From NCBI GenBank assembly GCA_019359015.1, contig JAHHID010000077.1, positions 1 to 33,452 of the forward strand: a DNA stretch of 33,452 nucleotides, written 5' to 3'. This stretch comes from Spirirestis rafaelensis WJT71-NPBG6. Lineage in GTDB: Bacteria; Cyanobacteriota; Cyanobacteriia; Cyanobacteriales; Nostocaceae. A model generated the notes under the pieces. It saw only the letters and a program-made list of their open reading frames with translations. It was not told the origin of the DNA and ran no database searches. The position numbers were made by a program, and so were the translations under genes. Below are positions 749 to 33,452 of the stretch, piece after piece. The stretch's first letter is position 1. Each line of letters starts with the position of its first letter.

Positions 749-3076
749 TTATGCGTGCATCTTTATAACTTCTTCTCCCTTTACCCTTTTTTCCTTTCTC
801 CTTTCCCCCTCCTGTCTGGCAATTGGCGCTAGTTGTACCGCACAAGCTTTTAATTCTGGTTGCAGTGAGTCGGGACAAGATTCTGGATGGGTGAGAGCGT
901 TTGCTTCTGAATTTTCTGCCCACAGCGCACCCCAATGCATGGGGACAAAGACTGTACCGGGTGCGATCGCTTTTGTAATTTTTGCCGGAAATTTGGATTT
1001 TCCCCGACGCGATCGCACTTCCACCCACTCGGAATCTGTAATATTCAACTGCGCTGCATCACGAGGATGAATCTCAATAAAGGGTTCGGGATGCATCGAA
1101 CGAATTTTTTCAATCCGACCGGTGCGCGTTTGAGTGTGCCAATGTCCGTAAAGTCGCCCAGTTGTCAAGACAAAGGGATAATCCGGATCTGGTGGTTCTG
1201 CTAGTCCTCGCGAATGATATGCGCCAAATCGAGCGCGTCCATCAGGAGTGTGAAAGCGCAAATCGGTGTACAGTCTTTTGGAGTTAGGAGTTGTAGAGAC
1301 GCGATTAATGAGCCAGCGCGTTGCGGAGGTTCCCTCCGTTGTAGCGTCTGGCGTCGCGTCTGTATTTTCTTCAAAACCGAGAACTCCTGTATCAGAATCG
1401 ATATATATAGGCTCAGGTTTATTTTCTGGGTGGGGCCATTGAGTCGCGCCTTCCGCTTGTAATTGCTCGTGACTGATACCTGTCATGTCGCAAGGACGGT
1501 TGCAAGTCAGTTTGACAAACTCAGTATATACCTCAGCCGAGTTTGTAAAAGAAAATTCTCTCTCAAAACCTAAGCGCCGACCAACTTCGGCAAAAATTTC
1601 CCAATCTGCTTTCGCTTCCCCAAGCGGTGCGCGGAATGCTTTAGATAACGTGACTACTCGTTCGGAGTTTGTCATCACGCCAGTTTTTTCACCCCATTGG
1701 GCTGCGGGTAAGAGGACGTGAGCGTAAGCAGCGGTTTCTGTTGGATAATAGGCATCTTGATAGATTGTAAAAGGCGATCGCCACAATGCTTTCTTTGTCC
1801 GCTCTAAATCCGGCATACTCACAGCCGGATTAGTCGCCGCAATCCACAGTAAACCGACATTACCATTTTCTAACTCGGTAATCATATCCCACACCGACAA
1901 ACCGGGATTTGGGGAAATTTGCCCTGGCTTCAATCCCCAAAATTCCTCAACTTCTTGGCGGTGCTGGGCATTTTTCACCGTGCGATAACCGGGTAACAGA
2001 TGTGATAAACCTCCGGCTTCTCGTCCTCCCATTGCGTTTGGCTGACCGGTCAAGGAAAAAGGTCCTGCTCCAGGCTTACCAATTTGTCCGGTCATTAAGT
2101 GCAAATTAATGATGGTTCTGACTTTAGCTGTACCTTCCGATGATTGATTGACACCCATTGACCACATCGACAGCACCCGCTGTGATTGACCCCAGTAGCG
2201 AGCTGCTGTTTCTAAATCTTCAACGCTGATACCGCAGCGATGAGCTACTACGTCTGGGGAATAATGGCGAATCACCTCAGCGTATGCAGGAAAGTTGCTG
2301 GTACAGTCCTCGATGAACGCGGGATCAATGTAATTCCAGCGCATCAATAAGTGAGCGATACCGTTCATCAAGTCGATATCTGTACCGGGACGAATCGCTA
2401 AATGTAAATCTGCGGCTTCTGCGGTTGGTGTGCGTCGGGGATCGACGACAATCATTTTGACTTTGCGATTTTTTTTGTGGTACTTCTCCAATCGGTTGAA
2501 AATGATTGGGTGACATTCAGCCGTATTCGTGCCTATTAAAAAGGCACAGTCGGTTAATTCTAAGTCATCGTAACAGCACGGGGGACCATCTGCGCCGAAG
2601 CTTTGAATATAGCCAGCTACAGCGCTAGACATGCATAAGCGAGAGTTGGCATCAAAGTTGTTTGTACCCAAACACCCTTTCATCAGTTTCTGAGCGATGT
2701 AATAGTCCTCAGTTTGAAACTGACCGGAGCCGTACATACATAAAGCTTCTACTCCTTGGGTAAAGCGCACAGTTTGAATGCGCTTGGTGATGAGATCAAA
2801 AGCTTCATCCCAAGTTGCGCGGCGAAATTCCTGTTCTAAGGAATCTCGTACCATTGGGTAACGTAATCTATTTTTATCTAAAGATTCGGCGATGGTTGCG
2901 CCTTTGACACACACCATACCTTGGCTCGATGGGTGCGCTTTGTCGCCCCGCACCCGCCAAATAGGAGTTCCTTGGCTATCTCGATTAGTCGCTTTGCCAT
3001 GTTGCGCTGGAGGCGAAACTTCTAGTCCACAGCCGACACCACAGTAAGGACAGACGGTTTTGGTAATTTCAGTCAT
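749..3076 (-). CDS. narB: Ferredoxin-nitrate reductase NarB
   Basis: Cytoplasmic molybdoenzyme that reduces nitrate to nitrite with electrons from ferredoxin. The N-terminus has the [4Fe-4S] motif CPYCGVGC (Cys9, 12, 16) with the fourth cysteine in GMVCVKGA (Cys56). A likely Mo-ligand Cys lies in [12 protein letters not shown] near residue 148, followed by molybdopterin-domain signatures and a C-terminal molydopterin dinucleotide-binding domain ([17 protein letters not shown]). I chose ATG 3076 ([12 protein letters not shown]), the usual NarB start; a TTG at 3100 would add eight unrelated residues. At about 775 aa it exceeds the usual 730-740. The excess is explained by an in-frame repeat insertion (1291-1361) and a basic C-terminal tail of about 22 residues read from a pyrimidine-rich repeat. 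It is the last gene of nirA-nrtP-narB. Confidence 0.95.
1291..1361. repeat. Palindromic repeat inserted in frame inside narB
   Basis: Three nested inverted segments fold this stretch into one cruciform: AGACGCGA (1297-1304) with TCGCGTCT (1354-1361), GCCAG (1312-1316) with CTGGC (1348-1352), and CGGAGG (1324-1329) with CCTCCG (1333-1338) around a TTC loop. From memory, similar GTAGAGACGCG repeats occur between genes in Nostocales. On the narB strand it reads open and encodes about 24 residues ([14 protein letters not shown], then [10 protein letters not shown]), low-complexity and unlike the flanking enzyme. GGAGTTAGGAGTT next to it is another short tandem repeat of the same kind. Confidence 0.75.
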
Positions 3077-3400
3077 GGCGTTTGCACTCTCATTCACCAA
3101 TTGTCTAAATGTTGAACAATAAGGTTTGTAGAGACATAATTAAAAGGAAATAACTGTGTTTACAAACCTTTGAGATAAAATTCGCATCCGAGAAAATATG
3201 ATGGTTTCTGTTAAGAAAATTTCTCAAATTAACTTGGAAAACTTTCGGAAGTTTTCTCGATAGTATTTTTACTCATTGAATATCAATTAAAACAAATAAA
3301 ATGTATTTAATGATACTTTTTATTCATTAACTTGTCGTTTTTTTATTATGCACTTTTGACAATTTAATAACTAAATCTTTGAGAAAAATACAAGTTTAAC

Positions 3401-7314: not shown

Positions 7315-8613
7315 GTGAATAACATCAACCAGCTTTTGGTGCAAGCGCAGGCAGCACATGATGCAGCTGATTGGTCACTAGTCTTGCAATGCGTCCAACA
7401 GTTGATTCTGGGAGAGGACTTTACACACCCAGATATAGTGAAAAATCAAGAATATTTGCAGGAATTAGCACTATCAATTCTAGAAATGGGGGATTTTCAG
7501 CAACGCTGGGAAATTGCCAAACTGTTTGTCCGTTTGGGAAATGTTGCTATAACCCCGTTGATTGACATCCTAGAAGATGAAGATGCAGAGGAAGAATTGC
7601 GCTGGTATGCAGTGCGAATTTTGGGCGATTTAAAAAATCCAATTGTCATTCCACCTTTGGTAGAATTTCTTAAAAATAGTAACGATGAAGAACTTAAGGC
7701 GATCGCCGCCGGCGCATTAGGACAAATTGGACAAAGTGCGATTACTGCTTTATCAGAACTTTTGGCATCAGAAAATACACGACTTTTAGCAGTGCGATCG
7801 CTTTCTTACATTCGGCAACCTGAAATCATTGCACCTCTATTAAGTGTGGTGCAAGATCCGCTAGTTGAAATACGCGCTATAGCCATTGAAGCTCTCAGCA
7901 GCTTTCACGATCCACGTATTCCACCGATTCTTTTAAAGGCTTTAACTGATGTTGCAGGGGCAGTCAGAAGAGAAGCTGTGCTTGGTTTGGGTGTTCGCTC
8001 TGGCTTACACTCAAGTTTAGATTTAGTGGCGAAACTGCAACCCAAACTTTATGATTGTAATCTAGAAGTTGCTGAAGCAGCGGCGGTTGCACTCTCGCGG
8101 ATGGGTAGTGATGAGGCTGCCGAAAACTTATTTCAAGCGCTAATATCACCCCACACACCGATAAAATTACAACTAGAAATTGTCCGCGCTCTGGGTTGGG
8201 TAAAGACATTATCTGGTTTGGAATATCTCCAAGAAGCATTTAATCAGCTTTCATCACAGACTCTGTGGTTAGAAATTGTCACAGTTTTAGGACGAGTCAG
8301 CAATTCAACATTAAGTGCTGCATCGGCAGGAATTTTGCTTTCAATACTGCGATCGCAACATCCAGCAGTTGAGATTGTTTCAATTAAAAGTGCGATCGCT
8401 TTATCTTTGGGACAATTAGGCAACATTGACGCAATGGAGCCGTTGATTTCTCTACTAGCAGAGAATAATGAAGTCGTCAGACTGCACATCGTCGCTGCCC
8501 TAAAAAATCTCGCAGCAGAAACCGCTTATCAACAATTGCAACAATTATTAAATAGTGCCACACTTACACCAGATTTACGAAAAGGTATTACCGCAGCTTT
8601 GGCGGAATGGTAA
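7315..8613 (+). CDS. HEAT-repeat (PBS-lyase-like) protein divergent from nirA
   Basis: 432 aa made almost wholly of HEAT/PBS-lyase-like helical repeats of about 31 residues. Examples are ELRWYAVRILGDLKNPIVIP, ELKAIAAGALGQIGQSAI, EIRAIAIEALSSFHDPRIPP and AVEIVSIKSAIALSLGQLGN. Such proteins are soluble scaffolds for protein-protein contact; a bilin lyase role is not supported by context. It starts with GTG at 7315, in line with the repeat N-terminus. It is divergent from the nirA operon. A gene called nirB, needed for full nitrite reductase activity, lies next to nirA in some cyanobacteria. Equivalence is a guess from position only. Confidence 0.88.
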   Translation: MNNINQLLVQAQAAHDAADWSLVLQCVQQLILGEDFTHPDIVKNQEYLQELALSILEMGDFQQRWEIAKLFVRLGNVAITPLIDILEDEDAEEELRWYAVRILGDLKNPIVIPPLVEFLKNSNDEELKAIAAGALGQIGQSAITALSELLASENTRLLAVRSLSYIRQPEIIAPLLSVVQDPLVEIRAIAIEALSSFHDPRIPPILLKALTDVAGAVRREAVLGLGVRSGLHSSLDLVAKLQPKLYDCNLEVAEAAAVALSRMGSDEAAENLFQALISPHTPIKLQLEIVRALGWVKTLSGLEYLQEAFNQLSSQTLWLEIVTVLGRVSNSTLSAASAGILLSILRSQHPAVEIVSIKSAIALSLGQLGNIDAMEPLISLLAENNEVVRLHIVAALKNLAAETAYQQLQQLLNSATLTPDLRKGITAALAEW

Positions 8614-8616
8614 TAC

Positions 8617-8663
8617 GTAGTAAGCACTTTAGTGCTTATTTTAAACACTTCAGTGCTTACTAC
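8617..8663. repeat. Hairpin repeat (AGTAAGCACT family)
   Basis: GTAGTAAGCACT (8617-8628) pairs perfectly with AGTGCTTACTAC (8652-8663). Inside, AAGCACT-TT-AGTGCTT forms its own hairpin. It lies 4 nt after the HEAT-gene stop and may act as its transcript end. A relative with GCGCT in the arms lies at 10643-10658. Confidence 0.75.
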
Positions 8664-8685
8664 CCTAGCCACATTTATTATCAAC

Positions 8686-9627
8686 ATGCCAAAATGTGGA
8701 CGCGAAACTAATACATCGGTATTTAGTGTGTTTAAATTTTTTACTAAACTTGATTACCTGCTAAAAGAAACTTTCCTCGGTTTGCTGCGGGGAGGTTGGA
8801 TGAATTGGGCGGCGATAAGTACCGTCACGGTGTTACTATTTTTATTCGGGTTGAGTCTGCAAAGCTCTTGGCAATTAGAAAAGCTTCTCAACCAATTTGG
8901 TAGCCAATTAGAAGTATCAGTTTACCTCGATGCGGGTGCGCGCTTTGATGCGATCGCTCCAATAGTTGAGAAATTACCTGAAGTCGCAGCAATACAAACA
9001 ATCACCAAAGAGCAAGCTTGGAATAAGCTAGTTAAGGAACTAGGAATTTCTGATATTGAAGGTGCTACCCAGCAATTAGGCGATAATCCCTTAGTTGATG
9101 AGATTAAGGTAAAGGCGCGTAACTCGCAAGTTGTCCCCACTTTAGCAACGCAACTTGCTAAAATACCTCAAGTTAATGCAGTGCAATATGTAGATGAAGC
9201 TGTACAACGCATCGCTCAGTTACATCAAGGGTTAAATTGGATTACTTTAACAGTTACTATTATCTTGACTTCAACGGCGATCGCTGTCACTAGCACGACA
9301 ATTCGCTTAATTGTTTTGGCTCGACGTCGAGAAATTGAAATCATGCAACTTGTGGGTGCAACTTCGACTTGGATTTACCTACCGTTTATTTTACAAGGAA
9401 TTGCTTTTGGTTTAGTTGGCGGTGCGATCGCTTGGAGTTTCATTTCTCTAATTCAGCAGTTTGTTAGTAGTTCGCTTACTAATCAACCTGAGTTTATCCA
9501 ATTTATTACCAACGGTTTGCAACTCACTAGCGCACAAACTTTATTATTTCCTTTGATTCTCCTCAGTTTTGGTGCCACAGTCGGATTACTCGGAAGCTTA
9601 TTTGCAGTGCGTCGATTTGCTAGATAA
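8686..9627 (+). CDS. ftsX: FtsX-like cell-division ABC transporter permease
   Basis: Integral plasma-membrane partner of the FtsE ATPase, which links division to cell-wall hydrolases. Layout: a cytoplasmic N-terminus, TM1 (WAAISTVTVLLFLFGLSL), and a periplasmic domain (SQLEVSVYLDAGARFDAI to VQYVDEAVQRIAQL). The FtsX core follows, with three further TM helices and the motif TTIRLIVLARRREIEIMQLV (G at the next residue). I start at ATG 8686 (MPKCGRE), giving 313 aa, close to family size. A GTG at 8632 would begin inside the hairpin repeat. FtsE is not in the window. Confidence 0.88.
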   Translation: MPKCGRETNTSVFSVFKFFTKLDYLLKETFLGLLRGGWMNWAAISTVTVLLFLFGLSLQSSWQLEKLLNQFGSQLEVSVYLDAGARFDAIAPIVEKLPEVAAIQTITKEQAWNKLVKELGISDIEGATQQLGDNPLVDEIKVKARNSQVVPTLATQLAKIPQVNAVQYVDEAVQRIAQLHQGLNWITLTVTIILTSTAIAVTSTTIRLIVLARRREIEIMQLVGATSTWIYLPFILQGIAFGLVGGAIAWSFISLIQQFVSSSLTNQPEFIQFITNGLQLTSAQTLLFPLILLSFGATVGLLGSLFAVRRFAR

Positions 9628-9635
9628 TGGGGTAT

Positions 9636-9677
9636 TGGGCACTGGGCACTGGTCATTGGGCATTGGGCACTGGGCAT
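9636..9677. repeat. Six tandem TGGGCAY heptamers
   Basis: Six consecutive 7-bp units (TGGGCAC, TGGGCAC, TGGTCAT, TGGGCAT, TGGGCAC, TGGGCAT). A complementary CCCAATGCCC lies at 9741-9750. This is a typical short tandemly repeated repetitive (STRR) sequence of filamentous cyanobacteria, placed between ftsX and the DUF3598 gene. Confidence 0.8.
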
Positions 9678-9780
9678 GGAAAGAATTTATGATACAAACA
9701 TCCACTCGCTTATAGCGTCTTTAATAACTTTTTATTCAATTCCCAATGCCCTAATCTAAAATCCAAAATCTAAAATTGCT

Positions 9781-29975: not shown

Positions 29976-30053
29976 TCAACACCTGTTTTTATCCCCTTTG
30001 TTATCAGCAGGCGATCGCTTATAAGGTCATACACTAACAGAGTTACGAGTCGT

Positions 30054-30405
30054 CTCGTTCCTATGCTCTGCAAATTGGTGACAACTTAAGAAAAAGGTAA
30101 GGTTGCGGACGACCTTATTGCTTATCTTATATCATGTCCGGCTAATTAGTTATAATTCCCACATAATAGCAAAAACCGGGAAACCCTCTTTACCCCTGCA
30201 AGAGTGCAAGAGTGCAAGAGTGCGGACAACCATGATAAGTCTTTAACCGGACACGATATTACTTCTCCCAAAAATCGAGATTTGGGAGTTGTTAAATATC
30301 AACCCAAATCTCGATAGCGAGACACTTTGGACTTATCTCCACACCCCACTTGACATTTTGGCGATCGCTTTAAGTTGTCACCAATGGTCAGAGACTGGGA
30401 ATGAG
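30054..30405. mobile_element. Nested MITE-like element, outer unit
   Basis: The 36-nt ends (30054-30089 and 30370-30405) are inverted copies that agree at 29 of 36 positions. This includes a perfect 16-bp core ATTGGTGACAACTTAA. The 280-nt interior has no ORF and contains a second element with its own ends (30129-30259). This fits a non-autonomous, palindromic transposable element. No transposase that would recognise it is identifiable here. Confidence 0.65.
30129..30259. mobile_element. Nested MITE-like element, inner unit
   Basis: The ends ATATCATGTCCGG (30129-30141) and CCGGACACGATAT (30247-30259) are inverted with 12 of 13 matches, and similarity continues about 15 nt inward at a lower level. 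The 131-bp unit contains three exact CAAGAGTG tandem copies (30199-30222). There is no coding capacity. Confidence 0.6.
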
Positions 30406-30417
30406 CGCTCTTAAGGT

Positions 30418-30487
30418 CTGCCTCGTCAATGAAGAGAAGATTGAGGCAGAGCCTCTATAAGTGCATTCCCAGGCTAGAACCTGGGAA
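30418..30487. repeat. Double-hairpin dispersed repeat
   Basis: Two hairpins lie in tandem: CTGCCTC (30418-30424) with GAGGCAG (30443-30449), and TTCCCAGG (30466-30473) with CCTGGGAA (30480-30487). From memory, GCATTCCCAGG...CCTGGGAACGA is a frequent intergenic string in filamentous cyanobacteria. Pyrimidine tracts (30541-30570) follow. Confidence 0.65.
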
Positions 30488-30579
30488 CGAAACATATAAA
30501 GTCGTTAGCGGAAAAGGTATAAAAAATAAAAAATAATATTTTCTTCCCCTTTCCCCTTTCCCCCTCTTTTTCATCTCAC

Positions 30580-30655
30580 CCCTCCAGGAGACCCCCACCA
30601 AAGCTCTACTCAGCTTGGTGGTGGGAGGAATGGAGGGTTAATTGTCACAATTAAC
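30580..30655. other. Palindromic 3' end of the iscB transposable unit
   Basis: Just past the iscB stop come GTTAATTGT-C-ACAATTAAC (30637-30655) and a long nested hairpin. In the hairpin, CCCTCCA (30580-30586) pairs with TGGAGGG (30631-30637). Inside it, CCACCAAAGCT pairs with AGCTTGGTGG with one bulged A and loop CTACTC. IS200/IS605-type elements end in subterminal hairpins rather than inverted repeats, so this is probably the right end of the original insertion sequence, or the iscB terminator. Confidence 0.6.
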
Positions 30656-30662
30656 AAATTTC

Positions 30663-30832
30663 TTAGAATGCATACGAGTAACCATCCTTTTTGTGAATAT
30701 GTTTACAATACTTGTACGAAATTCCTTGAACTAATCCATCCTTTGTTGAAATGTTGAAACTACCTGTTGCACGAGTGGCAATTCTCCCAACATATTGACC
30801 GATTTTCTTGCCTGTAGTGACTGTCGCTTTAA
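30663..30832 (-). CDS. iscB: iscB 3' exon (C-terminal domain)
   Basis: After the intron the minus strand reads KATVTTGKKIGQYVGRIATR, ATGSFNISTKDGLVQGISYK and YCKHIHKKDGYSYAF, then TAA. This is the typical C-terminal region of IscB proteins (VGRIAVRATGSFNI and DGYSY elements). The first two bases (TT) complete the Val codon begun by the last G of the 5' exon. Joined, the two exons give 402 residues with no frame disturbance. Without splicing this part has no start codon and cannot be expressed with the nuclease core. Confidence 0.88.
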
Positions 30833-30873
30833 ATTAAACTCAACGAGGCTGTCACCAACCCCGTTGGTCTTCA

Positions 30874-30907
30874 AAACCGTGCATGAGACTTTCACCTCAC
30901 ACGGCTC
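30874..30907 (-). ncRNA. Group II intron domain V
   Basis: 34-nt catalytic hairpin. GAGCCGTGTGAGG and TCTCATGCACGGTTT form the two strands around a GTGAAAG tetraloop region. The AGC catalytic triad lies in the first GAGCCG, and the opposite strand ends ACGGTTT. It is followed by the domain VI helix and the 3' splice site 41 nt on. Confidence 0.88.
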
Positions 30908-30926
30908 CTCAATGGTTTGGTGCTTG

Positions 30927-31997
30927 TCATGCATACCTCATTACCCATTTATCCTCAACTCTTACGAGTTTTCTGGTGGGCTTAGGCTCGGCACTATTAC
31001 AACCGGATTTTGTGCCAAGACTACCATCATTAGCAGTCTTTGTGTCATGGCAATGTCTATGTAAAAGTTGAAGATTTTTGTAATCATCCTTTCCACCTTT
31101 TGATTTTGGGATAATATGGTCAACTTCCATCACGTCGTTTTCACGGAAAAACATTTTACAATGAGCGCATTTCCCTTTTTGCTTTTTCAGGAGTTTTGAA
31201 GTCCTAATTGGCATTTCTGGGTTATTACCCATTCTTGAACTCCAGTAAACCAGATTCCCATCGTATGGTGACGATTCGCCTTTAACTTTCACATGACGCA
31301 CTATTGGTGTGTCTTTGTGTGATAGTAACCGCAGAGAGGTTTTTCCTTCTTGCCTCGTTGCGAATACCCAATTGTTATCCCCGATGGTATGCCAGTATTT
31401 ATCTATCATCCACTTAATATTTTTGTGTGGATGTCGGCGTTTTACCCAAGCAATTAGCTTTTGGTACATGAGGTGATCTAGATTCGAGTAAGTATCCTTG
31501 CTTACTACAGTTGCATAGTATTTTGCCCATCCCCTGATAATGGGGTTCAAGTGTCTTATTAGTCCCGCTTGCGGGGCTGACTTATGGGATTCTATGACCT
31601 TAGCGATTTTATCGTAGTGTACCTTTTGCTTTTCTTTACTTGGGGTGATGATGGTCTTGAAACCTAGTAATTTTCCGTTGGTATTTTTCCCTGTACGGTA
31701 TTTTCCCGCAGGGAATTGGCGTATATTGAAACCAAGGAATTTGATTCCTGGTTTTTCACCCTTATATTCTGTGAGGGTGTGAGCCAATCTTGTTTTGCTA
31801 GGCTTTAATTCCAACCCAATGCCTTTTAACCATTCCGAGATTATTTCCCGGCATCTTTGGACAACGGTTATGTCTTCGTGGAGAATTACAAAGTCATCGG
31901 CGTATCGAATAAGGCTAACTCTATCGCGTCTACGTGATTTAGAAAGACCTTCTACAGGTAACGACGATTCAGGCGTGTCTTCAAGCCGAGGCTTTAC
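30927..31997 (-). pseudogene. Group II intron maturase, N-terminally truncated
   Basis: The open frame starts after a TGA at 32000 and has no proper start. It begins with residual palm sequence and reaches the RT catalytic motif RYADDFVILHED (YADD at 31904-31893). The thumb/X maturase domain follows (LKPSKTRLAHTL, FLGFNIRQF, LNPIIRGWAKYYATVVSKDT). Last is an HNH endonuclease domain with two Cys pairs (CAHCKMFF, VDHIIPKSKGGKDDYKNLQL, LHRHCHDTK). RT blocks 0-4, including the first catalytic Asp, are absent, so it cannot act as a reverse transcriptase. X/HNH alone might still bind RNA or DNA. An automatic call from TTG 31814 would miss the YADD part. Confidence 0.85.
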
Positions 31998-32221
31998 TCA
32001 TGGGTACTTTGCTTGATGGATTACCAACTTAGGCTGTTAGTAGAGCCACCTTTCATCCCCGCTTTACGGATTGATGACTAGTCGCTACCGTAGGGGAAGT
32101 GCTTTCAGCCTTGCACCTAGGCGGTAGGATTTTCACCTACAAGGTCATTCAGTTGTCTGGCTAATGAAACCAGCTAATCGTCCCTAAGCATTTCTGCTTA
32201 TTTAGATTAAACGAATCGCAC

Positions 32222-33260
32222 CCATGTCGCCAGTTTGAAAACCAAAGTGAAATTTAGTTCTTGAACAATGACGATTTGGAAATCCAAACTTGTCAGTTCT
32301 GCATGATTGACGTGTACCGTGACCATTAGCAATAATCAACAAAGGCTTAACACCTTTAATATTTAAAAGTGGCGTTGATTTCCCAACACAAGCTGCATCA
32401 ACCCAATGGGTTTTTTGTAAGTTCTGTTGACTGCGATTAAACTTTGTTAATCCACCAGAACCAGTTTCTACAGGCAACTTAGTTGCTTTCAAAACTTCAA
32501 ATAATGCAAATCTAGTTGCGTTAACTGCTGCTGCATCTGCCAAAGGTCGTTTAGCTTCTTTAAGAATTTTCTCTAATTTAGATAAGTCTTTTTTCAGAAA
32601 ATATTTAATATCTTTAGTTCCTTTTCTGCTGTTGCACTTCTGGCAACTTAACGTAAGATTGGTGATTGAGTTGGAACCTCCTTTAGCTCTTGGGTGAATA
32701 TGCTCTACTTGCAATGGAACATCTTTGATTCCGCAGTAAGCGCATTGCCTATTCCACTTTTCTAATAGATATTCTCTAGTTTCGTAACCAGTGAGCGTAC
32801 CTTGTTGATACTCTTTACCTTGTATATCAGGATTACGCATTAACTGCATATCAAAGCGTACTAGCTCCTGACTTATTGCTGCGATTGGTGCAAATTTACG
32901 TAGCTTGTTAACCCAAGTTTTGATATTTTCAATTCGACTCTGCAAACTTGGTGCTAGCCATCCTTCTCGTCTAGTTCTGTTTAAGAAACGTGGTTGACGA
33001 TATCTGGTTTTTCTACTCCTTCTACTTCTACGCAATTGTCTTCTAGAAGTTAAACCATCTCGAATAACAAATCCTCTGTGCTTTAATTCAGCAGCAAATA
33101 TTACCTCACCATTGGCATCGTTAACCAATACAATCCCTGTATGCTTTGCACCAGGATCTATCTTTAATCTGAGTGCTGATACTGGCGCTTCAAGACGCGA
33201 TTCCTTAAGAATAATCGTGAATGGAAAACGTCTAAAAACTGCTGCTTTTTGATTCCGCAA
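32222..33260 (-). CDS. iscB: IscB RuvC-HNH nuclease, 5' exon
   Basis: RNA-guided nuclease family of IS200/IS605-related elements, related to the ancestor of Cas9. The order is RuvC-I LRLKIDPGAKHTGIVLV (Asp35), and the Arg-rich bridge helix SRRQLRRSRRSRKTRYRQPR. Then come RuvC-II AAISQELVRFD (Glu132), and HNH with CAYCGIKDVPLQVEHIHPRA (Cys173/176, His187) and CQKCNSRKG. RuvC-III is KTHWVDAACVG (His285, Asp288), so all catalytic residues are present. The reading runs on into the intron for six codons (stop at 32202), but the homologous protein ends at GFQTGDM. TTG 33260 is only the first possible start. The frame is open further up (NRQLISTRQLLRNQKAAVFR), yet the usual N-terminal PLMP-type segment is missing, cut near the neighbouring IS630. 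Confidence 0.9.
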
Positions 33261-33342
33261 TAGTTGTCTAGTAGATATTAATTGACGATTGCCGGATAAT
33301 TTTTCAGGGATTGGCCATCACAAAGCCGGAAAAGGGGGGGCA

Positions 33343-33452
33343 ATGGAACGACCAAGGTATATCGTGCGGCTCAGTACAGAAGAACGGGCAGAATTGGAAA
33401 GCATCGTCAAAAAGGGGAAAGGGAGCGCACACAAGATTCGTAACGCACAAAT
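33343..33452 (+). CDS. IS630-family transposase, N-terminus only (runs off the window)
   Basis: 36 codons are visible: MERPRYIVRLSTEERAELES then IVKKGKGSAHKIRNAQ. This matches the first helix-turn-helix of IS630/Tc1-mariner-like transposases (RLSxEERxxLExxVxxGKxxAxKIRxAQ). A G7 run two bases before the ATG serves as ribosome-binding site. The element faces away from iscB. Its left end should lie between 33272 and 33342, where GCCGG occurs twice, but the exact border and TA target cannot be fixed. Its insertion probably removed the 5' end of iscB. Confidence 0.75.
   Translation, partial: MERPRYIVRLSTEERAELESIVKKGKGSAHKIRNAQ

What the first reader, a model, noticed from the sequence alone, without database searches (positions are those of the whole stretch)
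30663..33260. IscB nuclease gene split by a group II intron, with exact in-frame exon junction
Removing 30833-32221 joins GGC GAC ATG G to TT AAA GCG, restoring GDM-V-KAT and a 402-residue IscB with all RuvC and HNH residues. The intron starts GTGCG, ends in AT, has domain V and VI, and CCATG at 32003-31999 can pair with exon CATGG. A self-splicing retroelement sitting in an RNA-guided nuclease of another transposon would make nuclease production depend on intron splicing.
Basis: partly seen in the sequence, partly recalled or inferred. Interest (0 to 1): 0.88.

Follow-up and report, generated by a model that had tools for sequence, protein, structure and literature searches.

The report
Decayed group II intron inside IscB
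A cyanobacterial gene for an RNA-guided DNA-cutting enzyme is interrupted by a retroelement (a group II intron) at an exact, reconstructable point, but this copy has lost most of its working core and the gene is also broken by a second transposon, so it is almost certainly a dead relic; intact-looking introns of the same kind do sit in this enzyme's gene in some other bacteria.

Summary
The intron and its junction are real: the joined exons read ...QTGDMVKATV... where intact IscBs read ...QTGDIVKAVV..., and D5/D6 match Rfam. The functional inference fails at this locus. (1) The intron is a 1389-nt remnant; two close full-length relatives are 2493 nt. The missing 1104 nt hold the rest of domain I with the EBS1 loop, domains II-III and the first part of the maturase. 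The proposed EBS (CCATG) is a motif conserved in relatives at unrelated exons. (2) IscB is cut again at codon 23 by an IS630-like element; the IscB start and HEARO guide-RNA gene lie beyond it on contig C28. So this is a nested, decaying pile of mobile DNA. Searching outward, group II introns recur in IscB: one case in Nostoc foliaceum and three IscBs in each of two Ktedonobacterales genomes. In one of these the three introns are full-length and identical (2409/2409 nt) although exons differ (77-83%, except one identical 5' exon pair), and two of the loci hold another group II intron inside the HEARO gene. Splicing was not tested anywhere.

The parts
30663..30832 (-). IscB 3' exon: last 2 bases of codon 372 to the stop codon
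   Evidence: join of flanks; homologues
30833..32221 (-). group II intron remnant, 1389 nt, inserted in phase 1 of IscB codon 372
30833..30909 (-). domains V and VI
   Evidence: RF00029 53.5 bits
30927..31997 (-). open frame of the intron-encoded protein from just before the RT YADD motif: end of RT, maturase (GIIM) and HNH; no RT start
   Evidence: (RVT_1 profile 146-205 of 205, GIIM 3-80 of 80, HNH)
31922..31958 (-). deletion junction: 5' matches to relatives stop at intron nt 263-264, 3' matches restart at nt 300-310; 1104 nt shorter than two full-length relatives
31999..32003 (-).
32222..33270 (-). IscB 5' exon from codon 23 to first base of codon 372 (RRXRR/RuvC parts, HNH), with the TA duplication at its 5' edge (33269-33270)
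33271..33452 (+). one end of an IS630-like element (terminal repeat, start of a transposase-like frame near 33343) that cuts IscB at codon 23; runs to the contig end. The other end is at C28:1-122 of the same genome
   Evidence: the family name is recalled, Pfam gave no family

Best explanation
An IscB (OMEGA) element in a cyanobacterium (inferred host) was invaded twice: by a group II intron that inserted into codon 372, and by an IS630-like element that inserted at a TA in codon 23. The intron copy later lost about 1.1 kb from the middle of domain I to the middle of its reverse transcriptase gene. Shown by sequence: both insertion points, both empty sites, the missing stretch, the absence of the EBS1 loop. 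Inferred: the remnant no longer splices, IscB protein is not made, and a read-through transcript ends in a truncated protein (reading passes 5 intron codons after GDM and then stops). The order of the two insertions is not known.
For: Junction and empty site. Length 1389 nt against 2493 nt in the two full-length relatives, 5' matches ending at intron nt 263-264 in 7 of 9 relatives compared and 3' matches restarting at 300-310 in 4 of 9. Pfam finds only the last part of RVT_1. EBS1 loop identified in four relatives and absent here. TA duplication, 20 of 27 identical terminal-repeat bases and restored codons PIHPAQA/RQLLRNQK joining C28 and the window. HEARO at C28:208-458, none at window 30000-33452 up to E 10, while 10 of 10 IscB loci that I chose had HEARO next to IscB. 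Other copies in this genome with internal losses (L016, L018). [quoted passage not shown]
Against: Both frames are still open: IscB has no internal stop and the maturase-HNH frame is open for over 350 codons, so decay is recent or something still constrains them. D5/D6 are well kept. A second multi-copy intron family whose 3' end is 80% identical (contigs C101, C124) could supply proteins in trans. The link of C28 to the window through the IS is inferred from sequence, since both contigs end inside it.
Confidence: 0.9

Rival explanations
1. The remnant still splices with help in trans: missing domain I-III parts and maturase come from another intron copy, in the manner of fragmented organellar or Euglena group III introns.
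For: Intron ends and D5/D6 are intact and the exons are open. The genome holds a full-length intron of another lineage with a 579-codon open frame (L017). A yeast intron with its EBS1 stem-loop removed was rescued by that stem-loop in trans (PMC4424553, passage). In T. elongatus some intron proteins splice several ORF-less introns (PMC2882425, passages).
Against: The loss is internal to domain I and takes EBS1, not only the ORF. The best other match in this genome is 82% identical over 89 nt and 79% over 945 aligned positions. Even if spliced, IscB lacks its start.
Confidence: 0.04
2. The internal deletion is an assembly error joining two intron copies.
For: Draft assembly of 143 contigs; introns are repeats.
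Against: No other stretch of this genome is more than 82% identical to any part of the intron, so there is no near-identical copy held to join with. Seven of nine relatives lose similarity at the same base.
Confidence: 0.05
3. One reading: an intact self-splicing intron gating an active IscB.
For: Exact in-frame junction, GTGCG end, D5/D6.
Against: Missing core and EBS1; IscB cut at codon 23 and separated from HEARO.
Confidence: 0.01

Closest known systems
Bacterial group II introns with an RT-maturase-HNH protein, in other mobile elements (Ll.LtrB in a relaxase gene; T. elongatus introns in IS elements and in each other)
   Same: A group II intron inside a gene of another mobile element; decayed copies beside better ones. 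Passages of PMC6003770, PMC2882425, PMC4424553, PMC8919778.
   Different: The host gene is IscB; this copy lacks the middle of the intron, so the host-gene control shown for Ll.LtrB cannot be assumed.
IStrons (group I intron joined to an IS200/IS605 or IS607-type element)
   Same: A self-splicing intron combined with an IS of a related transposon world (PMC4227781, passages).
   Different: Group I, not group II, and a fused mobile unit; here the intron is an insertion at a site inside the coding region.
IscB/HEARO (OMEGA) elements
   Same: IscB of 427 codons if uninterrupted, HEARO upstream on C28.
   Different: Cut at codons 23 and 372.

Membership tests
group II intron | 5' end GTGYG and 3' end AY | tested here: met
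   GTGCG...TTTAAT
group II intron | domains V and VI | tested here: met
   RF00029 and RF04357
group II intron | complete domains I-IV | tested here: not met
   1104 nt missing against two full-length relatives. Rfam D1-D4 models are no test: they missed the intact relatives L140, L141 and L143 too
group II intron | EBS1 loop pairing with the 5' exon | tested here: not met
   loop located in four relatives by pairing; region absent in the window
group II intron | full reverse transcriptase-maturase | tested here: not met
   only the end of RVT_1, GIIM and HNH; hence filed as a remnant of a group II intron
group II intron | splicing | not testable with these tools
   needs RNA
IscB | RRXRR/RuvC and HNH domains | tested here: met
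   PF14239 206 bits (profile from position 19), HNH 51.1 bits
IscB | N-terminal PLMP-type stretch in the same frame | tested here: not met
   replaced at codon 23 by the IS-like element; the stretch is on C28
IscB | adjacent HEARO (omega) RNA | tested here: not met
   none in window 30000-33452 up to E 10; one at C28:208-458
IS630 | TA target duplication, inverted repeats, DDE transposase | tested here: inconclusive
   TA duplication and 20 of 27 repeat bases; Pfam gave no family for either short transposase piece; family name recalled

The most novel reading that the evidence does not exclude
IscB/HEARO elements are a recurrent niche for group II introns. In Ktedonobacterales an intact, apparently mobile intron homes to one conserved IscB codon in divergent paralogues, and another lineage sits inside the HEARO guide-RNA gene, so that making both the nuclease and its guide RNA would depend on splicing. 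The window would be a dead member of this wider pattern. The recurrence is shown by sequence; homing and dependence on splicing are inferred.
Probability: 0.4. Interest if true: 0.72.

Novelty: new member of a known kind. Interest (0 to 1): 0.42.

Why it matters
At this locus little: it is a well-resolved example of mobile elements nested in mobile elements and decaying. What it led to may matter more. If intact group II introns in IscB and HEARO genes splice, they would place an RNA-guided nuclease and its guide under ribozyme control, and give a natural, testable system for how two kinds of mobile element interact. The known parallel is Ll.LtrB, which lowers expression of its relaxase host gene (PMC6003770, passages).

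Tried and rejected
Rfam D1-D4 models as evidence of the deletion: rejected, because they also missed three intact relatives. CCATG as EBS1: rejected. A second IscB with an intron at the same site: pattern search over 388 genomes of the order gave the window's own site and one hit in G395, whose surroundings match neither IscB nor the intron. The pattern allows no mismatch, so other spellings would be missed. EBS1 loops were picked by eye and the L142 loop is one base longer (offset 6, not 5). At free offsets two foreign exons reach 5 of 6, and the L143 loop pairs 5 of 6 at two offsets. Among the 80 IscB loci (92 relatives found, best 80 kept), 8 were not full single matches: L073 and L106 hold group II intron 5' ends, L109 an internal deletion, L085 a frame break, L102 ends at a contig end, L069 and L100 begin near the start of the held locus, L105 in overlapping pieces not followed up. 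No intron-protein match other than HNH cross-matches was found in the 80 loci.

Results against the wider reading: the D5/D6 of the Ktedonobacterales IscB intron does not reach Rfam's threshold in L205, L206, L207 or in the D. arantiisoli pieces, and only just in L209 (40.1 against 40). It is called group II from its protein (55.7% identical to the cyanobacterial one) and its D5-like sequence. Its 5' end reads CTGCG, not GTGCG, and its 3' end is not fixed: three offsets leave the frame open. One of the three G439 copies (L208) has no IscB in the 5.5 kb fetched, one (L209) carries an extra 1.3 kb and lies in a broken IscB, and the third was not fetched. In the search of 47 genomes of that order, 4 had a match, one of them (G438) only a weak 51-base one.

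Full report
Observation. The window is the whole of contig C77 of a 7.07 Mb genome in 143 contigs. On its minus strand, 32221 to 30833 is a 1389-nt stretch that starts GTGCG, ends TTTAAT and has domains V and VI by Rfam (RF00029 53.5 bits; RF04357 59.7 bits). Joining its flanks gives 402 codons from TTG 33260. Intact relatives (118 stretches, 92 relatives, best 80 kept; 17 of these examined at both ends) read ..FQTGDIVKAVV.. in most cyanobacterial cases; the joined window reads ..FQTGDMVKATV... So the intron lies after the first base of codon 372, and the empty site is right.

The intron is a remnant. Two relatives in other genomes, L140 (G001) and L141 (G048), are 2493 nt each and hold open frames of about 600 codons. 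The window copy is 1104 nt shorter. Its similarity to relatives stops at intron nt 263-264 in 7 of 9 loci compared (the other two at 244 and 228) and restarts at 300-310 in 4 of 9 (the other five show no restart there). What remains is the first part of domain I, the protein from just before YADD onward, and domains V and VI. Pfam agrees: RVT_1 only at profile positions 146-205 of 205, then the complete maturase domain and HNH. Rfam's domain I-IV models cannot be used as evidence, as they miss intact relatives too.

CCATGAGTAA is present on the right strand in 7 of 22 other intron loci scanned with this motif as the anchor (the other 15 lack it, lack that part of the intron, or, in L017, show it only on the other strand). 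It fits 1-2 of the last 5 exon bases in the five of those loci whose exon was read. A variable loop about 60-90 bases further on pairs with the own exon in L140, L141, L142 and L143 (6, 5, 6, 5 of 6) and with foreign exons in 1-4 of 6 at the same offset. These loops were picked by eye; at free offsets two foreign exons reach 5. That loop falls in the stretch that the window has lost.

IscB is cut again. Intact IscBs start MSKVFVIDxxKRPLxPIHPAQARQLL... The window keeps IscB only from codon 23, next to a TA (33269-33270) and a 182-base stretch up to the contig end that also occurs at the end of contig C69 (99%). Contig C28 of the same genome begins with the other end of such an element (also at C10), then, reading outward, the first 22 codons of IscB and a HEARO RNA (C28:208-458, 109.3 bits). 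Together they restore VSKVFVIDSEKRPLLPIHPAQA/RQLLRNQK and a gene of 427 codons, the length of the intact reference. The two element ends share 20 of 27 bases. I call it IS630-like from the TA duplication and recalled transposase features; Pfam gave no family for the short pieces. The link of C28 to the window is inferred, because both contigs end inside the element. In 10 of 10 IscB loci that I chose to test, HEARO lies directly before IscB; the window has none up to E 10. The genome has another, uninterrupted IscB with its HEARO on C2 (62% identical).

Reading. The locus is a doubly interrupted IscB with an intron that lacks the parts needed for exon recognition and the catalytic core as known. 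I infer that it does not splice and that IscB is not made. Frames still open suggest that the damage is recent. An assembly error is unlikely: no stretch elsewhere in this genome is more than 82% identical to any part of the intron. [quoted passage not shown]

What lies beyond the window. In Nostoc foliaceum FACHB-393 an IscB stops after KFGF with GTGCGATTCG.. at a contig end (L073), and another contig has a group II intron end (RF00029 44.7 bits) followed at once by PSRH.., the next codons (L180). In Dictyobacter arantiisoli (Ktedonobacterales) three IscB 5' parts end after codon 276 and three 3' parts begin at codon 277, all at contig edges, with identical intron ends (113 and 115 bases compared), while exons are 64-78% identical. 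In G431, of the same order, three IscBs hold a 2409-nt intron there with a 579-codon open frame; the introns are 2409/2409 identical, 5' exons 643/830, 643/830 and 831/831, 3' exons 324/420, 336/420 and 347/420. This is what recent movement into an existing site would leave, though gene conversion is possible, especially for the pair with identical 5' exons. In two of these three loci the HEARO gene itself is split by another group II intron of about 2.4 kb (RF02012 92.6 and 90.9 bits, RF00029 65.8 bits, 631-codon frame; HEARO halves on both sides); the two loci are 99.6% identical over 3.3 kb and so may count as one event. Caveats are listed in Tried and rejected.

Novelty. Searches for IscB with group II intron (15 papers; passages seen in three), HEARO with group II intron (1), IscB with intron and cyanobacteria (7), Ktedonobacter with group II intron (3; passages of one) and a four-term search (0) showed no report of a group II intron inside IscB or HEARO in what I saw; most of those papers I saw only as listings. 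As a kind, a group II intron in a mobile-element gene is known.

Noticed in passing
L205, L206, L207 (G431:C1); L106, L188, L189, L190 with L181, L182, L184 (D. arantiisoli): A group II intron at the same IscB codon (276/277) in three IscBs of each of two Ktedonobacterales genomes; identical introns in divergent exons in G431.
   Followed up: partly
L210 and L211 (G431:C1), also L212 (G439:C8) near the IscB start: A second group II intron splits the HEARO guide-RNA gene in L210 and L211; in L212 an intron end lies about 15 bases before the IscB start, after a HEARO match.
   Followed up: partly
L073 and L180 (Nostoc foliaceum FACHB-393): IscB interrupted by a group II intron between KFGF and PSRH, ends on two contigs.
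   Followed up: partly
L016 around 8193-9769 and L018 around 1220-3369 (same genome as the window): Two internally deleted introns, each lying in the protein gene of another group II intron at the same SYGFRPG stretch (nested introns).
   Followed up: partly
contigs C101 and C124, bases 1-127: Identical intron 3' ends at the very start of two contigs, 80% identical to the window's: a multi-copy intron probably lost from the assembly.
   Followed up: no
G004:C148 and G004:C99 (same genus): IscB genes split into overlapping pieces, as if by frame shifts.
   Followed up: no
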